The notes: generated by a model from the letters alone, not told the origin. Counted from the first letter of the stretch, positions 53,118 to 64,000 are shown. The stretch is 64,000 nucleotides of DNA from Deltaproteobacteria bacterium (GCA_028695735.1 JAQVIJ010000003.1:124001-188000); one strand, 5' to 3'. Program-made: numbers and translations.

Positions 53118-53609
53118 ATGGACTCAGACCGCATTTCCGGCAGGGCATTGGGGCTTTTTGATGAGGGATTTCATTGCAGTCAGGCGGTATTTTGTGCTGT
53201 GGCCGAAGCGCTTTCTCTTCAGGCCGGCGAGGTCAGCGCTGTTGCGTCCTCGCTCTCTCCATTCGGGGGTGGAATGGGAAGCAGCGGCAATATCTGCGGG
53301 AACCTGTCCGGCGCCCTGGCTGTACTGGGCGTGCTCATGGGCAAGCGTGAGCCTAAACTCCAGGACGACAAGAACATCTGGCGGGCGAGCAATCGAATGG
53401 TCAGGGAATTTGAAGAGATAACAAAGGAATACCACGGCATGAATTGCCGGGATATAGCGCGTATCGACTGGCGAAACCGGGAGGATGTAAGGGCATTCAG
53501 GGCGAATCCAGAGGGCCGGCGCAGGGAGTGCTGCCGTGTCATGGACAAGACCGTCAGGGCTTTGGTGGAGATATTGAAGGAATTGCAAGCCGTTCATTCA
53601 GTCCGGTAA
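53118..53609 (+). CDS. C_GCAxxG_C_C family (redox-active, cysteine-rich) protein
   Basis: 163-aa protein with the scattered cysteine/glycine pattern of the family: GFHCSQAV, GGGMGSSGNICGNLSGAL, GMNCRDIA and a C-terminal CC pair (RRECCRVMDK). Other family members are proposed to be redox-active or metal-binding; no activity is proven. No signal peptide, so cytosolic. It is followed by the Ig-like and YjdF-like genes at close spacing. Confidence 0.85.
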   Translation: MDSDRISGRALGLFDEGFHCSQAVFCAVAEALSLQAGEVSAVASSLSPFGGGMGSSGNICGNLSGALAVLGVLMGKREPKLQDDKNIWRASNRMVREFEEITKEYHGMNCRDIARIDWRNREDVRAFRANPEGRRRECCRVMDKTVRALVEILKELQAVHSVR

Positions 53610-53622
53610 CCCTTGTGAGAAG

Positions 53623-53964
53623 ATGTCCGCCCAGCTTGCCATACAGTTCATAAGCCCCCAGAACGGTCAGATGGTTAATAATGGGCAATCCCTGCACGTC
53701 AGCGCCTATGTAACCCTGAGCTGTGGGGCGCCCACCTGCGCCGGAGGCCGTTATGATGCCGCTCAATTGCATGTGACAGCAGAGTTGTTTCGGGATGGCT
53801 TGCCGGTGAGTGCTTCACGTATGTCTTTTACGGGTGATGTGAGCGAATTTGCCTGCGAAATTGCCCTGCACGGGCCAGGAAGATATGAATTGACAATCTC
53901 GGCCATGGACGGAAATTCAGGCATGGCAGGCAGGGCCAGATGCAGTTTCGGAGTCAGACCGTGA
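53623..53964 (+). CDS. Small Ig-like-fold protein, unknown function
   Basis: 113-aa protein of mostly beta-strand character (IQFISPQNGQMVNNGQSLHV...RYELTISAMDGNSGMAG), resembling single Ig-like or Big-type domains. It has no signal peptide or lipobox at this start and three cysteines. The GTG of the next gene overlaps its stop codon as GTGA. Function not recognised. Confidence 0.6.
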   Translation: MSAQLAIQFISPQNGQMVNNGQSLHVSAYVTLSCGAPTCAGGRYDAAQLHVTAELFRDGLPVSASRMSFTGDVSEFACEIALHGPGRYELTISAMDGNSGMAGRARCSFGVRP

Positions 53965-54542
53965 AATCATACAAGGCATGGATCTCAGGGTTGTATGCCG
54001 TTGTCTGGCTCTGGTCTGCCGTGGACCCGTTCAGCCGTAGCGACTGGTTGCTGGAGAACCTGCTGGTGTTTCTGGGGCTGCCCGTGGTCTTTTTTCTGGA
54101 TAGAAGATACGACCTCTCTCCCATTTCCTTTGCAGCAGTCTTTCTGTTTTTGGCCCTTCATTCCACAGGAGCGCACTACACCTATGCGGAAATGCCCGTC
54201 TTTCATCTGCTTTCCCAATGGTTTGGCCTGGGACGCAATCACTACGACCGTGTGGTGCACTTCCTGTTCGGGTTTCTGCTGTTTAAGCCCATATTCGAAT
54301 GTTTTCATAAGTCCGGCAATTCCCGTTCCATGGCAGGTTTTGTGACACTGTGCCTTCTGGTCTCCCTTTCTTCCCTTTACGAGATACTGGAGTGGCTGGT
54401 TGTGGAACTGGTCTATCCTGATCTCGGGGCGCAGTTCCTGGGCATTCAGGGCGATGAGTGGGATGCCCAGAAGGACCATGCCCTTGGGGTCTTGGGGGCG
54501 CTTATCGCCTATGGGATGAACAGACCCTTTATGAAAAAATAG
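53961..54542 (+). CDS. DUF2238/YjdF-like membrane protein
   Basis: 193-aa inner-membrane protein with five or six hydrophobic helices. The signature NHYDRVVHFLFGFLLFKP and the later SSLYEILEWLV and GDEWDAQKDHALGVLGALIAY match the YjdF/DUF2238 family. Role unknown. The GTG at 53961 has GGAG seven bases upstream and overlaps the previous stop; an in-frame ATG at 53940 is less likely. Confidence 0.82.
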   Translation: MKSYKAWISGLYAVVWLWSAVDPFSRSDWLLENLLVFLGLPVVFFLDRRYDLSPISFAAVFLFLALHSTGAHYTYAEMPVFHLLSQWFGLGRNHYDRVVHFLFGFLLFKPIFECFHKSGNSRSMAGFVTLCLLVSLSSLYEILEWLVVELVYPDLGAQFLGIQGDEWDAQKDHALGVLGALIAYGMNRPFMKK

Positions 54543-54754: not shown

Positions 54755-55681
54755 ATGACCACTGAAAACGCTGAAATTACTTTACCTCGTTCTATAAGCG
54801 AAGCAACCGAATATTATCGGGCAAAAATTGCCATAGGTACAAATCGCACTTGTTCGTGCAAACCCAATAGCCTAAATTGCTTAAGCGGTAAAGAGTGGCT
54901 TAAGAGTCAAATTGGTGTTTGGCAATTTTTCTATGAAGGCAGAGATATTCGAGACAAGAAATTACATCCTGCTACTTTTCCAATTTCTTTAGCCAAAAAG
55001 GTAATTAGCGTTTTTACACACGAAGGTGAATTAGTTCTTGACCCTTTTGTAGGAAGTGGCACTTCACTCGTAGCCGCTCAAGACCTAAATCGAAACGCTG
55101 TAGGGTTTGACTTGCAGGAAAAGTATATCGAGTTATGTGTTAAGCGATTGGCAGGCAATAACTTATTTAATCAGGCACAACAAGTTGCTATACAAGATGA
55201 TGCTTTGCATATTCCAAATTATTTAGAACCGGGTTCGGTCAGTCTAATATGGACTTCCCCGCCTTACGCTAATTTATTGAATCGGAAGCGCAAAAATAAA
55301 TCTAGGCGAGACAGAAATAATGAGCAACTCCATAAAGTAGAACAATACTCCCAAGATCCAAGAGATTTAGGAACTATGGCTTTGGATGAATATACATCTG
55401 CGATGGGTGATATTTTCGAGAAGTTATTACCATTGCTTCGCCCAAAAGGTCATTGTGTAATTAATGTCCCTGATATGTGGTGGAAAAATGAACGTATTAC
55501 AATTCATGTTTCCCTGATAAACGAATTGCGCAAACGTGGTTATGAACTCCGAAATACGATTATTTGGGATAGGACTAATATAGTGAATAATATTGGCATT
55601 TTTGGATACCCCAGCAACTACATCACAATGGGTACAACTTTTGAATATCTGCTCGATTTCTGGAGACCCCCTGAAGCATGA
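54755..55681 (+). CDS. Type II DNA methyltransferase, probably N4-cytosine
   Basis: 308-aa site-specific methyltransferase (N6_N4_Mtase family). The AdoMet motif LDPFVGSGTSLVAA (about residue 95) precedes the catalytic TSPPYANLL (about residue 167); this motif order fits the gamma-type arrangement. TSPPY is typical of N4-cytosine enzymes, while adenine enzymes usually have DPPY. It overlaps the next gene, an MvaI/BcnI-like nuclease, by 4 bp. The codon use is clearly AT-richer than the flanks, suggesting horizontal transfer. It should protect the host site, likely CCNGG-like by analogy; this is inference. Confidence 0.9.
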   Translation: MTTENAEITLPRSISEATEYYRAKIAIGTNRTCSCKPNSLNCLSGKEWLKSQIGVWQFFYEGRDIRDKKLHPATFPISLAKKVISVFTHEGELVLDPFVGSGTSLVAAQDLNRNAVGFDLQEKYIELCVKRLAGNNLFNQAQQVAIQDDALHIPNYLEPGSVSLIWTSPPYANLLNRKRKNKSRRDRNNEQLHKVEQYSQDPRDLGTMALDEYTSAMGDIFEKLLPLLRPKGHCVINVPDMWWKNERITIHVSLINELRKRGYELRNTIIWDRTNIVNNIGIFGYPSNYITMGTTFEYLLDFWRPPEA

Positions 55682-56463
55682 AAACCTACACCAAAGAGTC
55701 GTTGATTGCCGCGTTGAAAGATATAAAAAATCGTGGATGGATTCCTAATGCCCGCCCGGGAAATGTTGGTGGCATCGGAAACACGTTGGAAGACCTTCTT
55801 GGTATTCAGGAAAACAATCTACCAATTCCAAATGCCGCTGAATGGGAATTAAAATGTCAGAGAGCAGAAACAGCCTCATTAACAACTTTATTTCACATGG
55901 AACCTTCCCCACGAGCCTTGAAATTTGTGCCGAATATTCTTTTACCGAAGTATGGATGGAAACACGAACTTGCTGGCATAAGATATCCCGACAACGAGAT
56001 GAGTTTTCGCCAAACAATACACGGTCTTGAAAGAAGTGACCGGGGTTTTATGGTAGAAATTGACAAGGGCAATCGAAAAGTTTTGATTTCCTTTGACTCA
56101 AGCAAAGTAGATTCCCGCCATGCAGATTGGTTAGAGTCGGTCAAAAATCGTGTTGGCTTAGGTGAATTGAATCCACAACCGTACTGGGGATTTGATGACT
56201 TAAATCACAAGGCAGGTACAAAACTGCTGAACACCTTCTATGTTCAAGCAGAAGTTATGAAAGATGGCGAAAAGGAATTTTTTCATTACAATCGTATCTT
56301 GATACTAAAGGGGTTCAGCGTTGACAATTTTGTCAAAGCACTGATTGAAGGAAATGTGCTTGTAGATTTTGACGCTCGAACCGGTCACAATCACGGCACA
56401 AAATTTAGATTACGACAAAATGCTCGACCAAAGTTGTATTCTAATATTCAAGAAGTTGTGTAA
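55678..56463 (+). CDS. MvaI/BcnI-family type II restriction endonuclease
   Basis: 261-aa endonuclease. GWIPNARPGNVGGIGNTLEDLLG near the N-terminus, the catalytic EWELK (about residues 54-58, the E-x-K of the PD-ExK core) and the late HNHGTKFRLR match the MvaI/BcnI family, which cleaves CCWGG or CCSGG as a monomer. Its recognition sequence cannot be read from here. It is AT-rich like its methyltransferase and overlaps it as ATGA. It is followed by the hairpin GGCTAACG/CGTTAGCC. Confidence 0.9.
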   Translation: MKTYTKESLIAALKDIKNRGWIPNARPGNVGGIGNTLEDLLGIQENNLPIPNAAEWELKCQRAETASLTTLFHMEPSPRALKFVPNILLPKYGWKHELAGIRYPDNEMSFRQTIHGLERSDRGFMVEIDKGNRKVLISFDSSKVDSRHADWLESVKNRVGLGELNPQPYWGFDDLNHKAGTKLLNTFYVQAEVMKDGEKEFFHYNRILILKGFSVDNFVKALIEGNVLVDFDARTGHNHGTKFRLRQNARPKLYSNIQEVV

Positions 56464-56818: not shown

Positions 56819-58132
56819 ATGAAAGAAGCCGAGTCCACCCGCCGTTTCTTCTTGAAATCCCTTGCTGCATCCCTTTGTGTCACCTCCTTTGCCGGTTCCG
56901 AACTGCTTGAAGAGCTGTTTGCCGCAATGGCAGGCAGGACATCCCTTGAAAATGGCATAAACGCCGCCTTGAACGCCTTTTGCCTCTCCTCGGCAAACGC
57001 CGCCTCCATAGATGAGGTTCTGATGGACGCCCCTGAAGCCAGATACTGGGTTTACTCGAATCAGGAAGGGGTGGATTGCGGCCTTTGTCACGATGCCGCT
57101 GACGAGGGCATTCAGGCAGTGAAAGCCGGTGGTCACAACCACAAGACACCCGTAATCCGCTGTCAGCTCTGTCCTCACATGTGTGTGATAGAGGAAGGAA
57201 AACGGGGCAGATGCAGGACTCGAATGCATGTGAAAGGCAGTCTTAAAAGCCTGGTATATGGAAGGCCTGTGGCCATTCACACAGACCCAGTGGAGAAGAA
57301 ACCCTTGTTTCACTTCCTGCCTGGCGCCTATGCCTATTCCATGGGCACATCCGGATGCGTTCTGAAGTGCCGCTTCTGTCAGAACTGGGAGATATCCCAG
57401 ATGTCGCCCGAGGACTTTAATGTAGGGCGCATTCAGGCTGTTGCGCCCGTGAACGCCGCTTCGGCAGAAAAGGCGCCGATTATCGCCTTCACCTATAACG
57501 AGCCCACCACATGGACGGAATTCATGCTGGATGTCGTGCCCCTGGCCCACGAAAAGGGCATAAAATGTGTGATGATCAGTTGCGGATTTATAAATCCTGC
57601 GCCTTTGAAGGACCTGGCGCAGGTCATGGACGCCATCAAGATCGACCTCAAGGGCTTCAGCGAGAATTTCTATCAGAATGTCACCAGTTCCTCCCTCAAG
57701 CCTGTGCTGGAGAGCATAAAGATTGTCTCCGGACAGGTGAGGCAGGGCAGGTGCCACCTCGAGATCGTAAATCTGGTGGTGCCCACATTAAATGACTCCC
57801 AATCCATGCTGGGGAACCTGTCTTCCTGGGTATATGATGAGACAGGGCCGGATACCCCGCTGCATTTCACCAAATTTCATCCGGATTATCAGCTGATGAA
57901 TCTGCCTTCCACGCCGGTGGCGACGCTGGAGAAGGCCAGGGACACGGCCATGAAGACGGGAATGCGCTATGTCTATGTGGGCAATGTGCCGGGGCACCCA
58001 GGTGCTCACACCCATTGCCCCGCGTGTGGAAAGGTGGTTCTGGAGCGGAACAGCCTCTTCCTGCTGGCCAATCACCTGAAGGACGGCAAATGCGGGTTCT
58101 GTGGAGAACCGGTTCGGGGGGTCTGGGCATGA
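56819..58132 (+). CDS. amrS: AmmeMemoRadiSam system radical SAM enzyme with Tat signal
   Basis: Radical SAM protein of 437 aa. The [4Fe-4S]-SAM motif is GCVLKCRFCQNW (about residues 179-188). Upstream is the family cysteine segment CQLCPHMCVIEEGKRGRC, and the C-terminus has a zinc-ribbon pair (CPACGK, CGFCGE). Remarkably the N-terminus is a canonical twin-arginine signal, S-T-RRFFLK with a hydrophobic stretch after it, so the protein may fold with its cluster in the cytoplasm and then be exported. The following Memo-AMMECR1 fusion is coupled by ATGA. Reaction and substrate are unknown for this family. Confidence 0.9.
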   Translation: MKEAESTRRFFLKSLAASLCVTSFAGSELLEELFAAMAGRTSLENGINAALNAFCLSSANAASIDEVLMDAPEARYWVYSNQEGVDCGLCHDAADEGIQAVKAGGHNHKTPVIRCQLCPHMCVIEEGKRGRCRTRMHVKGSLKSLVYGRPVAIHTDPVEKKPLFHFLPGAYAYSMGTSGCVLKCRFCQNWEISQMSPEDFNVGRIQAVAPVNAASAEKAPIIAFTYNEPTTWTEFMLDVVPLAHEKGIKCVMISCGFINPAPLKDLAQVMDAIKIDLKGFSENFYQNVTSSSLKPVLESIKIVSGQVRQGRCHLEIVNLVVPTLNDSQSMLGNLSSWVYDETGPDTPLHFTKFHPDYQLMNLPSTPVATLEKARDTAMKTGMRYVYVGNVPGHPGAHTHCPACGKVVLERNSLFLLANHLKDGKCGFCGEPVRGVWA

Positions 58133-59643
58133 AGACCCTGATGCTGTGTTTCCTGATATTGTGTTTGCCTGTTGTCAGTTTTTCCAAGGAGGAAGATATG
58201 ATTCGAGCACCGTATGTGGCAGGTCAGTTTTATTCATCCAACGCGCAACAGCTCAAAAAGGCCATAGAACTTTATTTGGCACATGCCCCTGTGATTCCAG
58301 GGGCCGAACCCGTCGGTCTAATAGCGCCTCACGCAGGCTATGTGTATTCAGGACAGATAGCGGCGGATGCCTACAGACAGGCCCAGGGTCATGATTATGA
58401 TGTGGTGGTGATACTGGGCACCAATCACACGCGGCCTGGTTTTTCAGGCGTGTCCATTTATGCCAGGGGTGGCTTTCAGACGCCACTGGGAACGGCATAT
58501 GTGGACGAGGCCCTGGCTGAGGCCCTTCTGAAGGAGGATGAGCGTTTCGTCTTCGATTCAGGCGTGCATCGGGAGGAACACTCCGTTGAGGTGCAGGTGC
58601 CGTTCATTCAGTATCTCTTTCCAAAGGTGAGGATTCTGCCCGTGGTCATCGGCGAGCCTGACGAGGGGCTTTGCAAGGCCTTTGGTCAGGCCCTGGCCAA
58701 GGTATTGAAGGGCCGCAGACCCCTGATCGTTGCCAGTTCCGACCTCTCCCATTATCCTGCGCATGACGACGCAGTGCGTGTGGATATGAGAACCTTGAGG
58801 GCTGCGGCGTCCCTGGAGCCGTCCGCCCTGCTTCAGGCTGTTTCCGATGGCGAGAGAGAGGGTGTGCGCAGGCTGGGCACATGCGCCTGCGGCGAGGGGC
58901 CGATCCTTGCGCTCATGGAGGCCTGTAAAGGGCTTGGCGCCAGACAAGGAGTGGTAGTGAGTTATGCCAATTCAGGGGATGTCTCCATGGGTGATTATAA
59001 TCGCGTGGTGGGTTATGGCGCTGTGGCCTTTTTGAAGGGCCCTGTGCAGTGGAAGACCCTTGTGCCATCCGCCATGGAACAGCCGGTTCAGGATGCTGTG
59101 CTGACAACTGAAGACAAAAAGGCCCTTTTGAAGTTCGCTCGTGATACCCTGGAGCAGTTTCTTTCCACTCAGACAGCCCCCATTGCTCGCGGGTTCGGGC
59201 CTGGCGCCAATGTGGTGCGCGGGGCGTTTGTCACCCTCAAAAAACACGGCGATCTTCGAGGCTGTATCGGGAATATGCAGGCATCCTTTCCCCTGGCCCG
59301 CACCGTCGGGGCCATGGCCCTGTCCGCTGCATTGAATGACCCCCGTTTTCATCAGGTCAGTTACGACGAACTTTCTTCCATTCAAATAGAGATATCGGCC
59401 CTTACTCCTTTTAGGGAGGTGAGCGGAGTGAACGAGATAGTTGTCGGCAGGGATGGCGTGCTTCTGGTGAAGGGCGGCGCATCCGCTGTATTTCTGCCGC
59501 AGGTGGCGCCTGAGCAGGGCTGGGACCGCGATACCATGTTGAGCCATTTGTGCAGAAAGGCCGGAATGAATCAGGACTGTTGGCGCAGCGGGGCCAGATT
59601 CTATACATTCCAGGCGGAGATATTTGAAGAGGAACACAAATAG
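58129..59643 (+). CDS. AmmeMemoRadiSam protein: secreted Memo-AMMECR1 fusion
   Basis: 504-aa protein combining the two non-radical components of the system. Residues about 25-290 are Memo-like (PHAGYVYSG, LGTNHTRPGF, HREEHSVEVQVPF, SSDLSHYPAHD) with the presumed metal or substrate His residues. Residues about 320-500 are AMMECR1-like, with the hallmark LRGCIGN. The ATG at 58129 overlaps the radical SAM stop and gives a Sec-type signal peptide (KTLMLCFLILCLPVVSFS); the frame stays open to 58015. Memo relatives are similar to extradiol dioxygenases. In most genomes the two are separate, cytosolic proteins. Confidence 0.9.
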   Translation: MKTLMLCFLILCLPVVSFSKEEDMIRAPYVAGQFYSSNAQQLKKAIELYLAHAPVIPGAEPVGLIAPHAGYVYSGQIAADAYRQAQGHDYDVVVILGTNHTRPGFSGVSIYARGGFQTPLGTAYVDEALAEALLKEDERFVFDSGVHREEHSVEVQVPFIQYLFPKVRILPVVIGEPDEGLCKAFGQALAKVLKGRRPLIVASSDLSHYPAHDDAVRVDMRTLRAAASLEPSALLQAVSDGEREGVRRLGTCACGEGPILALMEACKGLGARQGVVVSYANSGDVSMGDYNRVVGYGAVAFLKGPVQWKTLVPSAMEQPVQDAVLTTEDKKALLKFARDTLEQFLSTQTAPIARGFGPGANVVRGAFVTLKKHGDLRGCIGNMQASFPLARTVGAMALSAALNDPRFHQVSYDELSSIQIEISALTPFREVSGVNEIVVGRDGVLLVKGGASAVFLPQVAPEQGWDRDTMLSHLCRKAGMNQDCWRSGARFYTFQAEIFEEEHK

Positions 59644-61818
59644 GTGCTTCCTGAGTTCTTTACCATAGGCCTGGTCTCGCTGCTGGGGCAGATTGTCCTG
59701 CTTCGCGAGTTAAGCGTGGCCACCTATGGCGTGGAACTCATCTATCTCCTGGGCATGGCAGGCTGGCTCATCGGCTCCAGTCTGGGGGCTGGTCTGGGGC
59801 GGCGTAGGGGCACAGGCGGTTATTCAGCCGTCCTGTGGATCTTTCTGCTGTATTCCCTGTTGCTGCCGTTGGATATGGTTTTTTTGCGGCTTTCCAGATG
59901 GCTTTTGGGCGGCGTGACAGGTGCCTTTCTGCCGTTTCATCTTCAGATACTGACCCTTATACTCTCGGTCATTCCACTGTCTTTTCTGATGGGTATGGCC
60001 TTTCAACGGGCTGCGCGACTCTGGATTGCTGAATGCAGTGAGACCAATGCACTGGCCCGTGCCTATGGCTGGGAGTGCATCGGCAGTGTGGCGGCAGGCG
60101 GCCTCGCCACCCTTGCGCCGGCCTTTCATGTGCCGAATTCCCTGACCGGATTGTGCTGTGCCTCTTTTCCCCTCCTTCTGATCTTTTGCCGTATGCCTCC
60201 GCTCAAGAAGATACGGGCTGTTTCAGTGGTTTCTGTGCTGCTTGCCGTGTTTTTTGCTGTTTCCGCTGTTTTTGTAAGCCCCATAGACCTCTGGACCAGC
60301 GGGTTCAATCACCCATTTTTGAAGGCGGTGGCGGACACACCCTATGGCAGAATAGCTGTCACATCCCTGGAAGGGCAGACCACCATCTTTGAAAATGATT
60401 CCGTCAGCTTTGAGACCGAGAGCAATTCAGCGGAAGAGCTGGTGCATTCAGCGGCCCTTCAACATTCAGCGCCCCGCAGCGTCCTGCTCCTTGGCGGAGG
60501 ATTGGAGGGACTTGTGGAGGAGGCCCTGAAATATGCGAGTGTGCAGACCATTGATTGTGTGGAGTTGAATCAGGAATTGATTCGCACCACCCTGCCGTTT
60601 CTTACGGATGAGCGCAGAAAGGCCCTTTCGAATCAGCGTGTGCGCTTCATTTATGAAGACCCCAGGCGTTTTTTGCTCCGCAGTTCCGGCGAATACGACC
60701 TGATTCTTGTGGCGATGCCTGAGCCGTCTTCAGGGCAGGCCAATCGCTTCTATACCAGAGAGTTCTTTCAGCTCTGCAGGACAAGGCTTTCCACCGGTGG
60801 TGTCATGGGCTTCAGGCTCAGCGCATCCGAGAATTTCTGGTCGCAGCAGTTGATTACCAGAAACAGGGCGATTGTCTCGGCTGTAAAGGGTGTATTCCAG
60901 GACGTCATGGTCCTGCCTGGCTCCATCAATCTGGTCCTGGCCGGAGACCAATTGACCATAGATACAGGGCTGCTGGCCAGGCGTTATGAGGCCGCAGGGC
61001 TTGCAAACCGGCTGGTCATTCCTCAGTATCTGCAATATCTGATCAGCAGTGACAGGTTTCAGGAGGTGGCCGGCCACATGTGGAAAGAGGATGCCGCAGG
61101 TCTGATGAACACGGACAAGAGGCCTGTCTGTTATTCCCTGACCATACGTCTGTGGCTCTCCAGGTTTTTCCCTGGTGTTTTGACCGCTGAAGGGCCGCTT
61201 GCCGGCTATAACGGTCATTCTGTTTTTTGGGGCATTCCTTTGCATTATCTTCAGGCGCTGGGCGTGTTTCTGGCCATTGCTGTATTATTCCGGCTGTTGA
61301 GGGGCGGAAAGATCCTTTCCAGGGCAGGCGTCATGTGCTGGGCCGCATTCTGGAGCGCTGTGCTTGAGACAGTGCTTCTTTTGCAGTATCAGGTCGCAAG
61401 CGGTGCCCTTTACGGTGAGCTTGGCCTGCTTCTCATGGCGCTGATGGTGGGGATGTCCGTGGGTGCCCTGGTCTTCGGAGCCCTTTCCCCTTCCCGTATG
61501 CTGGGGGCTGTGTTGGTGTCGGCCATGACATGCACCGGCTTGCTGGCGGCCTGGGGGGTGGATACGGGATTTTTGTCCGGCTTTTGGTCGGTCGGGCCCC
61601 TGATGCTGATCTGCGGCCTTCTTCTGGCCGGTGTCTTCGCATACCTGAGTCATGACCGCCTGCAGGAGAGGCTGGCTGCGCCGCTTTATACAGCGGATCT
61701 GGTGGGTGGGGCCATTGGAACAGTATTTGCCGTTCTGTATGCCATTCCTTTCTGGGGGTTGGATCAGGCGGCCTTGTTTACAGGGTTGTGGTCCATCGGC
61801 GTCATCTTCGGCATGTAA
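59644..61818 (+). CDS. Polytopic membrane protein with spermidine-synthase-like domain
   Basis: 724-aa inner-membrane protein. The N-terminal third has about six helices, then a Rossmann methyltransferase-like domain of the spermidine-synthase type (ILLLGGGLEGLVEEALKY-like region as VLLLGGGLEGLVEEALK, CVELNQELI, YDLILVAMPEPSSGQANRFYT), then about six more helices. It starts at a GTG directly after the Memo-AMMECR1 stop and so belongs to that unit. Aminopropyl transfer is not established for membrane versions; the substrate is unknown. It may act on the product of, or with, the exported AmmeMemoRadiSam proteins. Confidence 0.85.
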   Translation: MLPEFFTIGLVSLLGQIVLLRELSVATYGVELIYLLGMAGWLIGSSLGAGLGRRRGTGGYSAVLWIFLLYSLLLPLDMVFLRLSRWLLGGVTGAFLPFHLQILTLILSVIPLSFLMGMAFQRAARLWIAECSETNALARAYGWECIGSVAAGGLATLAPAFHVPNSLTGLCCASFPLLLIFCRMPPLKKIRAVSVVSVLLAVFFAVSAVFVSPIDLWTSGFNHPFLKAVADTPYGRIAVTSLEGQTTIFENDSVSFETESNSAEELVHSAALQHSAPRSVLLLGGGLEGLVEEALKYASVQTIDCVELNQELIRTTLPFLTDERRKALSNQRVRFIYEDPRRFLLRSSGEYDLILVAMPEPSSGQANRFYTREFFQLCRTRLSTGGVMGFRLSASENFWSQQLITRNRAIVSAVKGVFQDVMVLPGSINLVLAGDQLTIDTGLLARRYEAAGLANRLVIPQYLQYLISSDRFQEVAGHMWKEDAAGLMNTDKRPVCYSLTIRLWLSRFFPGVLTAEGPLAGYNGHSVFWGIPLHYLQALGVFLAIAVLFRLLRGGKILSRAGVMCWAAFWSAVLETVLLLQYQVASGALYGELGLLLMALMVGMSVGALVFGALSPSRMLGAVLVSAMTCTGLLAAWGVDTGFLSGFWSVGPLMLICGLLLAGVFAYLSHDRLQERLAAPLYTADLVGGAIGTVFAVLYAIPFWGLDQAALFTGLWSIGVIFGM

Positions 61819-61865: not shown

Positions 61866-62831
61866 TCAATACAGGACGGCCATTAAAAAACATGATCCTG
61901 CAAAGAGACCAGAGGTGAGATAGAGGAGTTTTACCGCCTCATCTATATGCCTTGTGGAGGGGAATCCGCTGTCTTCGTTCATATAAGGCCGTTGCACCCA
62001 TTTGCCATGATAGTTGGCGGGCCCGAAGAGCCGAATGCCGAGGCTGTGCGCAAAGGCCGCTTCGCTCAGGCCTGAATTGGGACTTGCGTGTTTGCCTGCA
62101 TCCTGTCTGACGCCTCTCAATACCTGAAATGGGTCTCGCATGCGCAGAAGCCATGCAGAAACAGCTATGAAGATCACGGTCAGTCGGGCTGGAATGTAGT
62201 TGGCTATGTCGTCCATTCGTGCCGACGCTGTGCCGAATTCCATGTAACGTTCGTTTTTATAGCCCACCATGGAATCCAGTGTGCTGATGGCCTTGAAGCC
62301 CACCGCAGCCACCGGTCCTGCCGCTGCTGCGTAAAAAAAGGGCGAAATCACTCCATCCACCAGGTTTTCCGCGCAGGATTCTATGGCCGCCATGACAATC
62401 CCTTTTTCATCGAGACTGCTCACATTCCGGCCCACTATGCGGGCAAGCCGCAGTCTTCCCGCCTCCAGCCCCTGTTCCTCCAGGGCGGTTCCAACCCCCT
62501 TTACCTCGTCCGCCAGACAGCGCAGGGAGACCGCCTGATAGATCAGAAACGTGCTCAAAAGCCAATAGGCGGGTTCGGAAAGATATTTGCAGAAGGAGAT
62601 GGCCGCCCATGCAGTTGTGCAGGAGATCAGGACGATGGCGCTTGCAAAAAGTCCGCCCTGAATGCGTGGGGGTAGGCTGAGCCTGCGAAATGCGGGCTCA
62701 CACCGGCTGATTAGAAGGCCCATGTAGCGCACCATGTGTGGCATGTATTCTGGATCGCCTGCAAGCAGGTCCAGAGTAACAGCGGCAAGTATAGGCCAGG
62801 CGTTTCCGTTTTCCAGTAGAAATGGCTTCAT
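61866..62831 (-). CDS. cbiB: Adenosylcobinamide-phosphate synthase
   Basis: Integral membrane enzyme (321 aa) that attaches aminopropanol (phosphate) to adenosylcobyric acid. Segments VTLDLLAGDPEYMPHMVRYMG, IESCAENLVDGVISPFFYA, YKNERYMEFGTASARMDDIANYIPARL and EAAFAHSLGIRLFGP are diagnostic of CbiB/CobD. It is convergent with the spermidine-synthase-like gene and 31 bp downstream of cobQ on the same strand, which supplies its substrate. Confidence 0.95.
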   Translation of the reverse strand: MKPFLLENGNAWPILAAVTLDLLAGDPEYMPHMVRYMGLLISRCEPAFRRLSLPPRIQGGLFASAIVLISCTTAWAAISFCKYLSEPAYWLLSTFLIYQAVSLRCLADEVKGVGTALEEQGLEAGRLRLARIVGRNVSSLDEKGIVMAAIESCAENLVDGVISPFFYAAAAGPVAAVGFKAISTLDSMVGYKNERYMEFGTASARMDDIANYIPARLTVIFIAVSAWLLRMRDPFQVLRGVRQDAGKHASPNSGLSEAAFAHSLGIRLFGPANYHGKWVQRPYMNEDSGFPSTRHIDEAVKLLYLTSGLFAGSCFLMAVLY

Positions 62832-62862
62832 GTGGGCAGTTTTTCTGATGCCATGGCCCCTT

Positions 62863-64000
62863 TCAGAGCCCCTTGTTCAGCACCGACATAATCTTGTCCA
62901 TATCTGCATTAGTCTTCATCCATTCAGCCAGTTTGTCCATGTTCTGTTCCTTGAAGGCCTTGTAGCAGATGGTTTCCCGTCTTTCGCAAAGCCCTTTCCG
63001 TCTGCGAAGGAGGTTCAAAAATGCCAGCCTGACCTCATCGTTTTCGAAGATTCCGTGGAGATATGTGCCCAACACAAGGCCGTCATCTGCCATGGCGCCC
63101 AGTTCCTCTCCCTTTTCAGGGCTTATGTGCTGGACAGGGCCGCTGGCAGAGGTCTTCCCCATGTGTATCTCATAGCCGGTTGCACGGCCATCGAGCCCAA
63201 GGGCTGGAATTTCCAGAGGGATCTCCGTCTGCTCCAGCCATTTGTCGAAGGTCATGACGGTCTCCACGGGCAAGAGTCCCAGGCCTGGCGTGGCGCCGGA
63301 AGGGCCTTCTACGCCAAGTGGATCGCTTACTGTCAGGCCCAGCATCTGATAGCCGCCGCAGATGCCCCAAATGGGTTTTCCTGCGGCCCTGGCGGCGTGT
63401 ATTGCCTCTGACAGGCCGTTTTCATGGAGAAATTGTAGGTCAGCACGGGTATTTTTGGTCCCTGGTATCAGAATGCAGTCACTTTTTTTCAGGCGATCCG
63501 GAGCGCTTGTGAAGGTGATGGATATGTCCTCTTCCACATCGAAGGGAGTGAAATCCGTAAAATTGCTGATGCGCGGCAGTTTTACCACTGCTATCTGAAG
63601 GGATGCCCCTGACCTGAATCTGGCGCTTTCGTGCAGATGCACTCCGTCTTCCTGGTCAACCGTGATGTCCTGAAACCATGGCAGCACACCCATGCAGGGT
63701 AGGGGCAGTATTCGGGCGAACTGGTCGATCCCAGGCTGCAATAGGCCCCTGTCACCTCTGAATTTATTGATGAGATAGCCGCGCAGAAGGGGTTTGTGGA
63801 GGTCTTGAATCAGGTCATAAGTGCCCTTGAGCCAGGCAAAGACGCCCCCCCTGTCGATGTCTCCTATGAGGATGACAGGTGCCCCTGCATATTCGGCCAT
63901 CTTCATGTTAACGAGGTCTCGGTGCTGGAGATTGATCTCGGCAGGGCTGCCGGCACCCTCGATGACGATCACATCGAATTCCCCTGCAAGGGAATCGTAG
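62863..64000 (-). CDS. cobQ: Cobyric acid synthase, 5'-truncated by window edge
   Basis: Amidates four side chains of the corrin ring with glutamine and ATP. The visible part holds the end of the synthetase domain (VIVIEGAGSPAEINL, ILIGDIDRGGVFA) and the glutamine amidotransferase domain with nucleophile Cys in GICGGYQMLG and His in LGTYLHGIFEN. The frame is open through the window end (EFDVIVIEG), so the N-terminus lies outside. Position next to cbiB fits a cobalamin cluster continuing beyond the edge. Confidence 0.95.
   Translation of the reverse strand, partial: YDSLAGEFDVIVIEGAGSPAEINLQHRDLVNMKMAEYAGAPVILIGDIDRGGVFAWLKGTYDLIQDLHKPLLRGYLINKFRGDRGLLQPGIDQFARILPLPCMGVLPWFQDITVDQEDGVHLHESARFRSGASLQIAVVKLPRISNFTDFTPFDVEEDISITFTSAPDRLKKSDCILIPGTKNTRADLQFLHENGLSEAIHAARAAGKPIWGICGGYQMLGLTVSDPLGVEGPSGATPGLGLLPVETVMTFDKWLEQTEIPLEIPALGLDGRATGYEIHMGKTSASGPVQHISPEKGEELGAMADDGLVLGTYLHGIFENDEVRLAFLNLLRRRKGLCERRETICYKAFKEQNMDKLAEWMKTNADMDKIMSVLNKGL

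What the first reader, a model, noticed from the sequence alone, without database searches (positions are those of the whole stretch)
56819..61818. Apparently exported AmmeMemoRadiSam system with a membrane spermidine-synthase-like partner
Seen: three coupled genes. The radical SAM protein begins with a canonical Tat motif (T-RRFFLK), the second protein is a Memo-AMMECR1 fusion with a Sec-type signal peptide, and the third is a twelve-or-so-helix protein with an internal spermidine-synthase-like domain. Known: radical SAM, Memo and AMMECR1 co-occur widely as a system with no assigned reaction, normally without export signals. Inference: this version works at or outside the cytoplasmic membrane. 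Tat would allow the cluster to be assembled before export, and fusion would fix the stoichiometry. The membrane protein could supply or use an aminopropyl-like or related modification. An envelope-located radical SAM reaction would need an unusual source of electrons and SAM, which makes the system worth study.
Basis: partly seen in the sequence, partly recalled or inferred. Interest (0 to 1): 0.8.

Follow-up and report, generated by a model that had tools for sequence, protein, structure and literature searches.

The report
Exported radical SAM system, possible heme
A trio of genes that normally works inside cells, built around an oxygen-sensitive radical enzyme, exists here in a version whose three products all carry features pointing outside the inner membrane, the enzyme also carrying what looks like a built-in heme site; this is unusual because no radical enzyme of this kind seems to have been described outside the cytoplasm.

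Summary
Three coupled genes encode an AmmeMemoRadiSam radical SAM enzyme (AmrS) with a canonical Tat signal, a Memo-AMMECR1 fusion with a Sec signal, and a membrane protein with a SpeE-like domain between two helix blocks. Export is not an oddity of this genome. Exported AmrS form one well-supported side of a tree, opposite cytosolic AmrS (100/100). Similarity places exported-type AmrS in 107 of 395 genomes of the phylum, and 93 of those also encode the membrane partner (35 of the other 288 do). Positive-inside analysis of 39 homologues puts the SpeE-like domain outside. New here: in the window's subclade a CxxCH and a His exactly seven residues before the AmrS Cys motif occur together (10/10 versus 0/76 elsewhere) and were lost together once; all eight sampled carrier genomes have ResB/CcsA cytochrome c maturation. 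This suggests a c-type heme module in an exported radical SAM enzyme. A zinc site is the main rival. The SAM source outside the cytoplasm, and the substrate, remain unknown. No prior description was found in the open-access library.

The parts
56819..58132 (+). Tat-exported AmrS (AmmeMemoRadiSam radical SAM enzyme), 437 aa
   Evidence: TIGR04337 344 bits vs cut-off 220; PF04055
56837..56857 (+). Twin-arginine motif T-RRFFLK (residues 7-13) followed by a hydrophobic stretch
   Evidence: Sequence; Tat-like start in 54/61 related AmrS (strict rule 45/61) vs 13/431 background ORFs by the strict rule
57077..57091 (+). CxxCH (CGLCH, residues 87-91), candidate covalent c-type heme site
   Evidence: C, C and H invariant in 10/10 members, xx varies; absent from other exported and cytosolic AmrS
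57140..57142 (+). His108, exactly 7 residues before the first Cys of the N-terminal Cys motif; candidate distal ligand
   Evidence: His at -7 in 10/10 CxxCH proteins, 0/47 other Tat-type, 0/29 cytosolic
57161..57214 (+). N-terminal Cys motif C115/C118/C122/C132 shared with cytosolic AmrS
   Evidence: Alignment A2
57356..57379 (+). Radical SAM cluster motif CX3CX2C (C180, C184, C187)
   Evidence: Kept in 10/10 heme-type and 49/49 other exported AmrS
58129..59643 (+). Exported Memo-AMMECR1 fusion, 504 aa; the only Memo and the only AMMECR1 found in the genome
   Evidence: TIGR04336 and TIGR04335 over cut-off; one PF01875 and one PF01871 match in the genome
58129..58188 (+). Sec-type signal peptide (about residues 1-20)
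   Evidence: Sequence; signal-like N-terminus in 31/37 homologues
58204..59031 (+). Memo domain with the three metal-ligand positions of human MEMO1 (H49, H81, C244) conserved
   Evidence: Alignment to 3bcz; ligands from PMC11081632
59122..59625 (+). AMMECR1 domain with LRGCIG motif
   Evidence: TIGR04335 168 bits; RGCIG in 36/40 homologues
59644..61818 (+). Membrane SpeE-like protein, about 14 helices with the SpeE-like domain between helices 7 and 8
   Evidence: PF01564; loop charge analysis of 39 homologues
60277..61239 (+). SpeE-like (Rossmann, nucleoside-binding type) domain, predicted to face the periplasm
   Evidence: Flanking loops PPLKKIRA and RLLRGGKILSRA positive, so inside; E307 and D339 kept, catalytic Asp replaced

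Best explanation
This is an extracytoplasmic branch of the AmmeMemoRadiSam system. AmrS folds and receives its 4Fe-4S cluster in the cytoplasm and is exported by Tat; the Memo-AMMECR1 fusion goes out through Sec; the 14-helix protein holds its SpeE-like domain on the periplasmic face. Shown by sequence comparison: the signals, their conservation, gene linkage, intact active-site motifs, the topology prediction and the coupled CxxCH/His pair. Inferred: ResB/CcsA attach heme c to CxxCH, His108 being the distal ligand, and the heme passes electrons from periplasmic low-potential carriers to the radical SAM cluster. More weakly inferred: the SpeE-like protein handles the SAM-type nucleoside outside (delivering SAM or removing 5'-deoxyadenosine or MTA), and AmrS acts on Memo-AMMECR1 or on its ligand. 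My separate estimates: export 0.88, SpeE-like domain outside 0.75, heme 0.65, electron relay 0.45, SAM handling 0.3.
For: Tat-like starts in 54/61 AmrS of this kind and signals on 31/37 Memo proteins. Tree: the exported side (61 rows) is separated from 29 cytosolic AmrS at 100/100, and the CxxCH clade at 100/100. The membrane gene is encoded in 93/107 genomes with exported-type AmrS vs 35/288 without, odds ratio 48, not corrected for kinship; 45/134 such genes lie within 6 kb of an AmrS where about 0.6 is expected, and 29 loci hold all three. Positive-inside loops put the SpeE-like domain outside. CxxCH and His(-7) occur together 10/10 and 0/76 elsewhere, lost together in one family. ResB in 8/8 sampled carrier genomes; the only two ResB-less genomes of 13 are in the family that lost CxxCH. 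TatC in 15/16 genomes.
Against: No SAM is expected in the periplasm and no SAM exporter was identified. AF2 models were poor (mean pLDDT 44 and 52), so neither the heme site nor the topology is supported by structure. The trimmed CxxCH segment of the window matches the zinc-binding Endonuclease_7 family at 24.8 bits, cut-off 23.6. The f40 family does without the CxxCH, and the nearest relative (G001) lacks the membrane gene at its locus. TatC was not found in one genome with a Tat-type AmrS (G176).
Confidence: 0.6

Rival explanations
1. The AmrS is exported, but the CxxCH...H insertion is a structural zinc site (treble-clef or Endonuclease VII-like, CxxC...CxxC) and not a heme site.
For: PF02945 match at 24.8 bits for the trimmed window segment (cut-off 23.6), weaker matches in four other members; the CxxC...CxxC spacing fits a treble clef.
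Against: The residue after CxxC is His in 10/10 and the His at -7 is invariant, neither needed for a CxxC/CxxC zinc site; the downstream Cys belong to a motif complete without the insertion in cytosolic AmrS; ResB/CcsA-type genes present in all eight sampled carriers. Two members match Paired_CXXCH_1 below cut-off.
Confidence: 0.25
2. The exported AmrS does no SAM chemistry outside; it works as a cluster-bearing redox or scaffold protein, or completes its reaction on a cytoplasmic target before export.
For: SAM is not expected in the periplasm (general knowledge); Tat exports proteins with cofactors already in place.
Against: CX3CX2C is kept in 59/59 exported AmrS and the TYxEP-type motif in 56/59, which argues for continued SAM binding; the near-obligate partner has a nucleoside-binding type domain facing outside.
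Confidence: 0.2
3. The N-terminal motifs are membrane anchors or chance, and all domains work in the cytoplasm.
For: No localisation experiment exists; some members lack a clear AxA cleavage site; the internal start near 58199 could give a signal-less Memo.
Against: Tat and Sec signals recur in partner genes across many families; the SpeE-like domain is independently predicted outside.
Confidence: 0.08
4. The membrane protein is a true aminopropyltransferase that makes or attaches an aminopropyl group.
For: PF01564 and SpeE sequence similarity over the catalytic domain.
Against: Key catalytic Asp replaced by Asn/Gly/Ala/Ser in most of 39 homologues (Asp in 4) and in all 12 of the subclade; aminopropyltransferase equivalog models far below cut-off.
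Confidence: 0.07

Closest known systems
AmmeMemoRadiSam system (TIGR04335/04336/04337), cytosolic form
   Same: Same three domain families, all over their NCBIfam cut-offs; same Cys and metal-ligand motifs
   Different: Here the proteins carry Tat and Sec signals, Memo and AMMECR1 are fused, a membrane SpeE-like partner is added, and AmrS has a CxxCH/His insertion
Pyruvate formate-lyase activating enzyme and other glycyl-radical activases
   Same: Closest solved structure by sequence (3c8f, E=0.001) and next-best NCBIfam models
   Different: Cytoplasmic, no Tat signal or CxxCH; no glycyl radical enzyme is encoded beside this cluster
Spermidine synthase / polyamine aminopropyltransferase (SpeE; 1uir, 3anx)
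   Same: Rossmann domain, glycine motif, Glu307 and Asp339 at nucleoside-binding positions
   Different: Embedded between two membrane blocks, predicted outside, key catalytic Asp replaced
c-type cytochromes matured by ResB/CcsA (System II)
   Same: CxxCH plus a conserved second His in an exported protein, maturation genes present
   Different: Single site inserted into an enzyme; no Pfam cytochrome family over its cut-off
MEMO1 (human)
   Same: Fe/Cu ligand positions H49, H81, C244 conserved (PMC11081632)
   Different: Bacterial, exported, fused to AMMECR1

Membership tests
AmmeMemoRadiSam system | AmrS radical SAM enzyme over TIGR04337 cut-off | tested here: met
   344 bits vs 220
AmmeMemoRadiSam system | Memo and AMMECR1 domains encoded together with AmrS | tested here: met
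   TIGR04336 261 bits and TIGR04335 168 bits in the overlapping next gene
AmmeMemoRadiSam system | Cytoplasmic proteins without export signals (usual, not formally defining) | tested here: not met
   Tat and Sec signals conserved
Tat substrate | S/T-RRxFLK-like motif followed by a hydrophobic region, conserved in orthologues | tested here: met
Tat substrate | TatC encoded in the genome | tested here: met
   three PF00902 matches in G000
Tat substrate | Export abolished in tat mutants | not testable with these tools
   needs an experiment
c-type cytochrome | CxxCH in an exported protein | tested here: met
   10/10 in the clade
c-type cytochrome | Second axial ligand conserved together with CxxCH | tested here: met
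   His at -7 10/10 vs 0/76; that it is a heme ligand is inferred
c-type cytochrome | Maturation machinery in the genome | tested here: met
   ResB at C9:191309 and CcsA-type gene at C9:192802
c-type cytochrome | Match to a known cytochrome c family | tested here: not met
   only sub-threshold Paired_CXXCH_1 in two members
c-type cytochrome | Covalently bound heme | not testable with these tools
   needs heme stain or mass spectrometry
Spermidine synthase (polyamine aminopropyltransferase) | Spermine_synth domain | tested here: met
   PF01564 68 bits vs 22.9
Spermidine synthase (polyamine aminopropyltransferase) | Catalytic Asp of the DxxDP motif | tested here: not met
   A357 in the window; Asp in 4 of 39 homologues
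Spermidine synthase (polyamine aminopropyltransferase) | NCBIfam equivalog cut-off | tested here: not met
   108 vs 472 and 102 vs 260 bits
Endonuclease VII-like zinc domain | PF02945 over cut-off in the clade | tested here: inconclusive
   24.8 bits (cut-off 23.6) in the trimmed window segment only, 13-19 bits in four members, none in the other four

The most novel reading that the evidence does not exclude
The first radical SAM enzyme that works outside the cytoplasm, carrying its own covalently bound c-type heme as electron entry and paired with a membrane protein that presents or clears the SAM-type nucleoside on the periplasmic face.
Probability: 0.35. Interest if true: 0.92.

Novelty: new variant of a known kind. 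Interest (0 to 1): 0.77.

Why it matters
AmrS, Memo and AMMECR1 have no assigned reaction although Memo and AMMECR1 reach from archaea to humans (MEMO1, AMMECR1). An exported version confines the possible substrates to the envelope and offers a purifiable, possibly heme-tagged enzyme. If it is active, radical SAM chemistry is not restricted to the cytoplasm, and SAM or an equivalent must cross the inner membrane.

Tried and rejected
Considered the signals a one-genome accident or a start-codon artefact: rejected on orthologue evidence. Considered the membrane protein an aminopropyltransferase: weakened by loss of the key catalytic Asp. AF2 models of the membrane protein and AmrS (alignments of 3 and 4 sequences; only window and the search for related loci sequences were eligible) were too weak to use beyond a helix count, and no fold search was run on them. 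Literature searches found no exported radical SAM enzyme; one hit, a Tat tail-anchor paper, proved unrelated. A paper on the PCAD-Memo superfamily, known to me from memory, is not held, so I could not check whether it mentions exported versions. First attempts with an off-by-one start for gene 2 failed.

Full report
What is there. Between 56819 and 61818 three genes lie head to tail on the + strand. Gene 1 (56819-58132) has a Shine-Dalgarno-like GGAGG upstream. The ATG of gene 2 (58129) overlaps the stop of gene 1, and gene 3 starts (GTG 59644) directly after the stop of gene 2, so the genes look translationally coupled. Gene 1 is AmrS (TIGR04337, 344 bits), gene 2 a Memo-AMMECR1 fusion (TIGR04336 and TIGR04335, both over cut-off), gene 3 a membrane protein with a Spermine_synth domain. 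The genome G000 has a second AmrS without extra N-terminus on another contig, but its only Memo and only AMMECR1 are those of the exported fusion.

Are the signals real? AmrS starts MKEAESTRRFFLKS, the canonical Tat motif; the fusion starts MKTLMLCFLILCLPVVSFS. I took 40 loci from the same phylum, three from named genomes and then about 19 more, and looked at the N-termini. Of 61 AmrS, 54 have a Tat-like start by a loose rule and 45 by a strict one; among 431 other ORFs from the same loci 13 pass the strict rule and 63 the loose one. Of 37 Memo proteins 31 have a signal-like start and 34 are fused to AMMECR1. Cytosolic AmrS begin directly at M-K-E-A-x-F/L-Y, without room for a signal. These are regular-expression and hydropathy rules, not SignalP.

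Exported AmrS form a clade. A 90-sequence tree splits a cytosolic group (29 rows) from a group holding all Tat-type AmrS (61 rows) at 100/100 support. Two rows in the exported group were labelled cytosolic: one is cut by a contig end, the other has a TRKEFLK variant. The tree is unrooted, so one side of a branch is what is shown. By similarity (E <= 1e-95 to the window AmrS, a cut at which the loci inspected at the lower end were Tat-type) exported-type AmrS occur in 107 of 395 sampled genomes of the phylum, in 77 of 246 genera.

The membrane protein is a near-obligate partner. At E <= 1e-30, 93 of 107 genomes with exported-type AmrS encode it against 35 of 288 without (odds ratio 48, Fisher p 3e-45, not corrected for kinship). 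45 of 134 such genes lie within 6 kb of an AmrS where random placement would give about 0.6; 29 loci hold AmrS, fusion and membrane protein together. The same genomes head all three ranked lists. The closest relative, G001, has AmrS and fusion but no membrane gene within the 16 kb fetched.

Which side is the SpeE-like domain on? Averaged over 39 homologues, the short loops alternate: K+R 2.3 before the domain's first flanking helix, 2.6, 2.4 and 1.3 in the inner loops of the second half, and 0.6 and 0.4 in the outer loops. Both flanks of the domain thus lead to the outside. The first half of the protein alternates less clearly. Helix count is about 7 + 7. The AF2 model (pLDDT 44) gives seven helices before the domain and is otherwise of no use. 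Within the domain E307 (34/39) and D339 (39/39) stay, at positions that in spermidine synthases bind the nucleoside (from memory of that family), while the catalytic Asp is Asn/Gly/Ala/Ser in most (Asp in 4 of 39, in none of the window's subclade) and an MPEPxSGQxNRFYT signature appears. I read this as nucleoside binding without aminopropyl transfer.

The new feature. Between the Tat signal and the AmrS core the window protein has DCGLCH...H. In 10 of 10 members of one well-supported clade (the window, its nearest relative G001, six other sampled genomes and L032/L033) the pattern is CxxCH with free xx, followed by a His exactly seven residues before the first Cys of the N-terminal Cys motif. 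No other exported (0/47) or cytosolic (0/29) AmrS has either element. One nested family (f40, four genomes) has lost both, which makes them look like one functional unit. It is an insertion between the strand ARYW (AxFY in cytosolic AmrS) and the Cys motif. All eight sampled carrier genomes have ResB, and the only two genomes of 13 without ResB belong to f40; because f40 is one lineage this is consistent with heme rather than a statistical test. The simplest reading is a covalently bound bis-His c-type heme. The competing reading is zinc: the trimmed window segment passes the PF02945 cut-off narrowly (24.8 vs 23.6 bits), but a CxxC/CxxC zinc site needs neither the invariant His after CxxC nor the His at -7, and four of the nine CxxCH segments have no such match.

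How it most likely works. Shown by comparison: intact radical SAM motif (CX3CX2C in all 59), Memo metal ligands in the window (H49, H81 and C244 positions of MEMO1; PMC11081632), RGCIG in 36 of 40 AMMECR1 domains. Inferred: AmrS is loaded with its cluster, exported by Tat, given heme by ResB/CcsA, and reduced by periplasmic low-potential carriers. Its target is probably the Memo-AMMECR1 fusion or a ligand of it, since these are its constant companions; AmrS resembles glycyl-radical activases in sequence, which act on partner proteins. The membrane protein may solve the SAM problem by presenting or clearing the SAM-type nucleoside outside. This last step is the weakest.

Limits. No localisation, heme or activity data exist. 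The structure models were poor. L032 and L033 are near-identical although named from different phyla, so one may be misbinned and they count as one lineage. Sampling was within one phylum. Literature was searched only in an open-access library; nothing on exported radical SAM enzymes was found.

Noticed in passing
window 54755-56463: DNA methylase (PF01555) overlapping an MvaI/BcnI-type restriction endonuclease (PF15515, 216 bits): a type II restriction-modification pair directly upstream of the system.
   Followed up: partly
L090:7015-8085 and seven further loci (L077, L079, L081, L082, L084, L092, L098): A second radical SAM protein, PflX-like, next to exported AmrS; in L090 it also begins with a Tat motif (EITRRDFIKSS), so a second exported radical SAM family may exist.
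   Followed up: partly
L034:4716-5780; also L094, L096, L121, L132: DUF362-type proteins next to exported AmrS, with a Tat motif in L034.
   Followed up: partly
L117 (G414:C16:48000-62000): Exported Memo-AMMECR1 fusion and membrane SpeE-like gene without an AmrS nearby; a PflX-like radical SAM lacking a Tat start lies 1.1 kb upstream.
   Followed up: partly
L032 and L033: Near-identical three-gene loci named as Deltaproteobacteria and Calditrichaceae: misbinning or recent transfer.
   Followed up: no
G000:C9:156646-157653 (L024): Second, cytosolic-type AmrS in this genome although no cytosolic Memo or AMMECR1 was found; its partner is unknown. It lies beside what reads like ftsH and an exported SYLF-type protein.
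   Followed up: partly
window 53118-54542 and 61866-63999: C_GCAxxG_C_C redox protein and DUF2238 membrane protein upstream; cobamide genes CbiB/CobD and CobQ-like convergent downstream.
   Followed up: no
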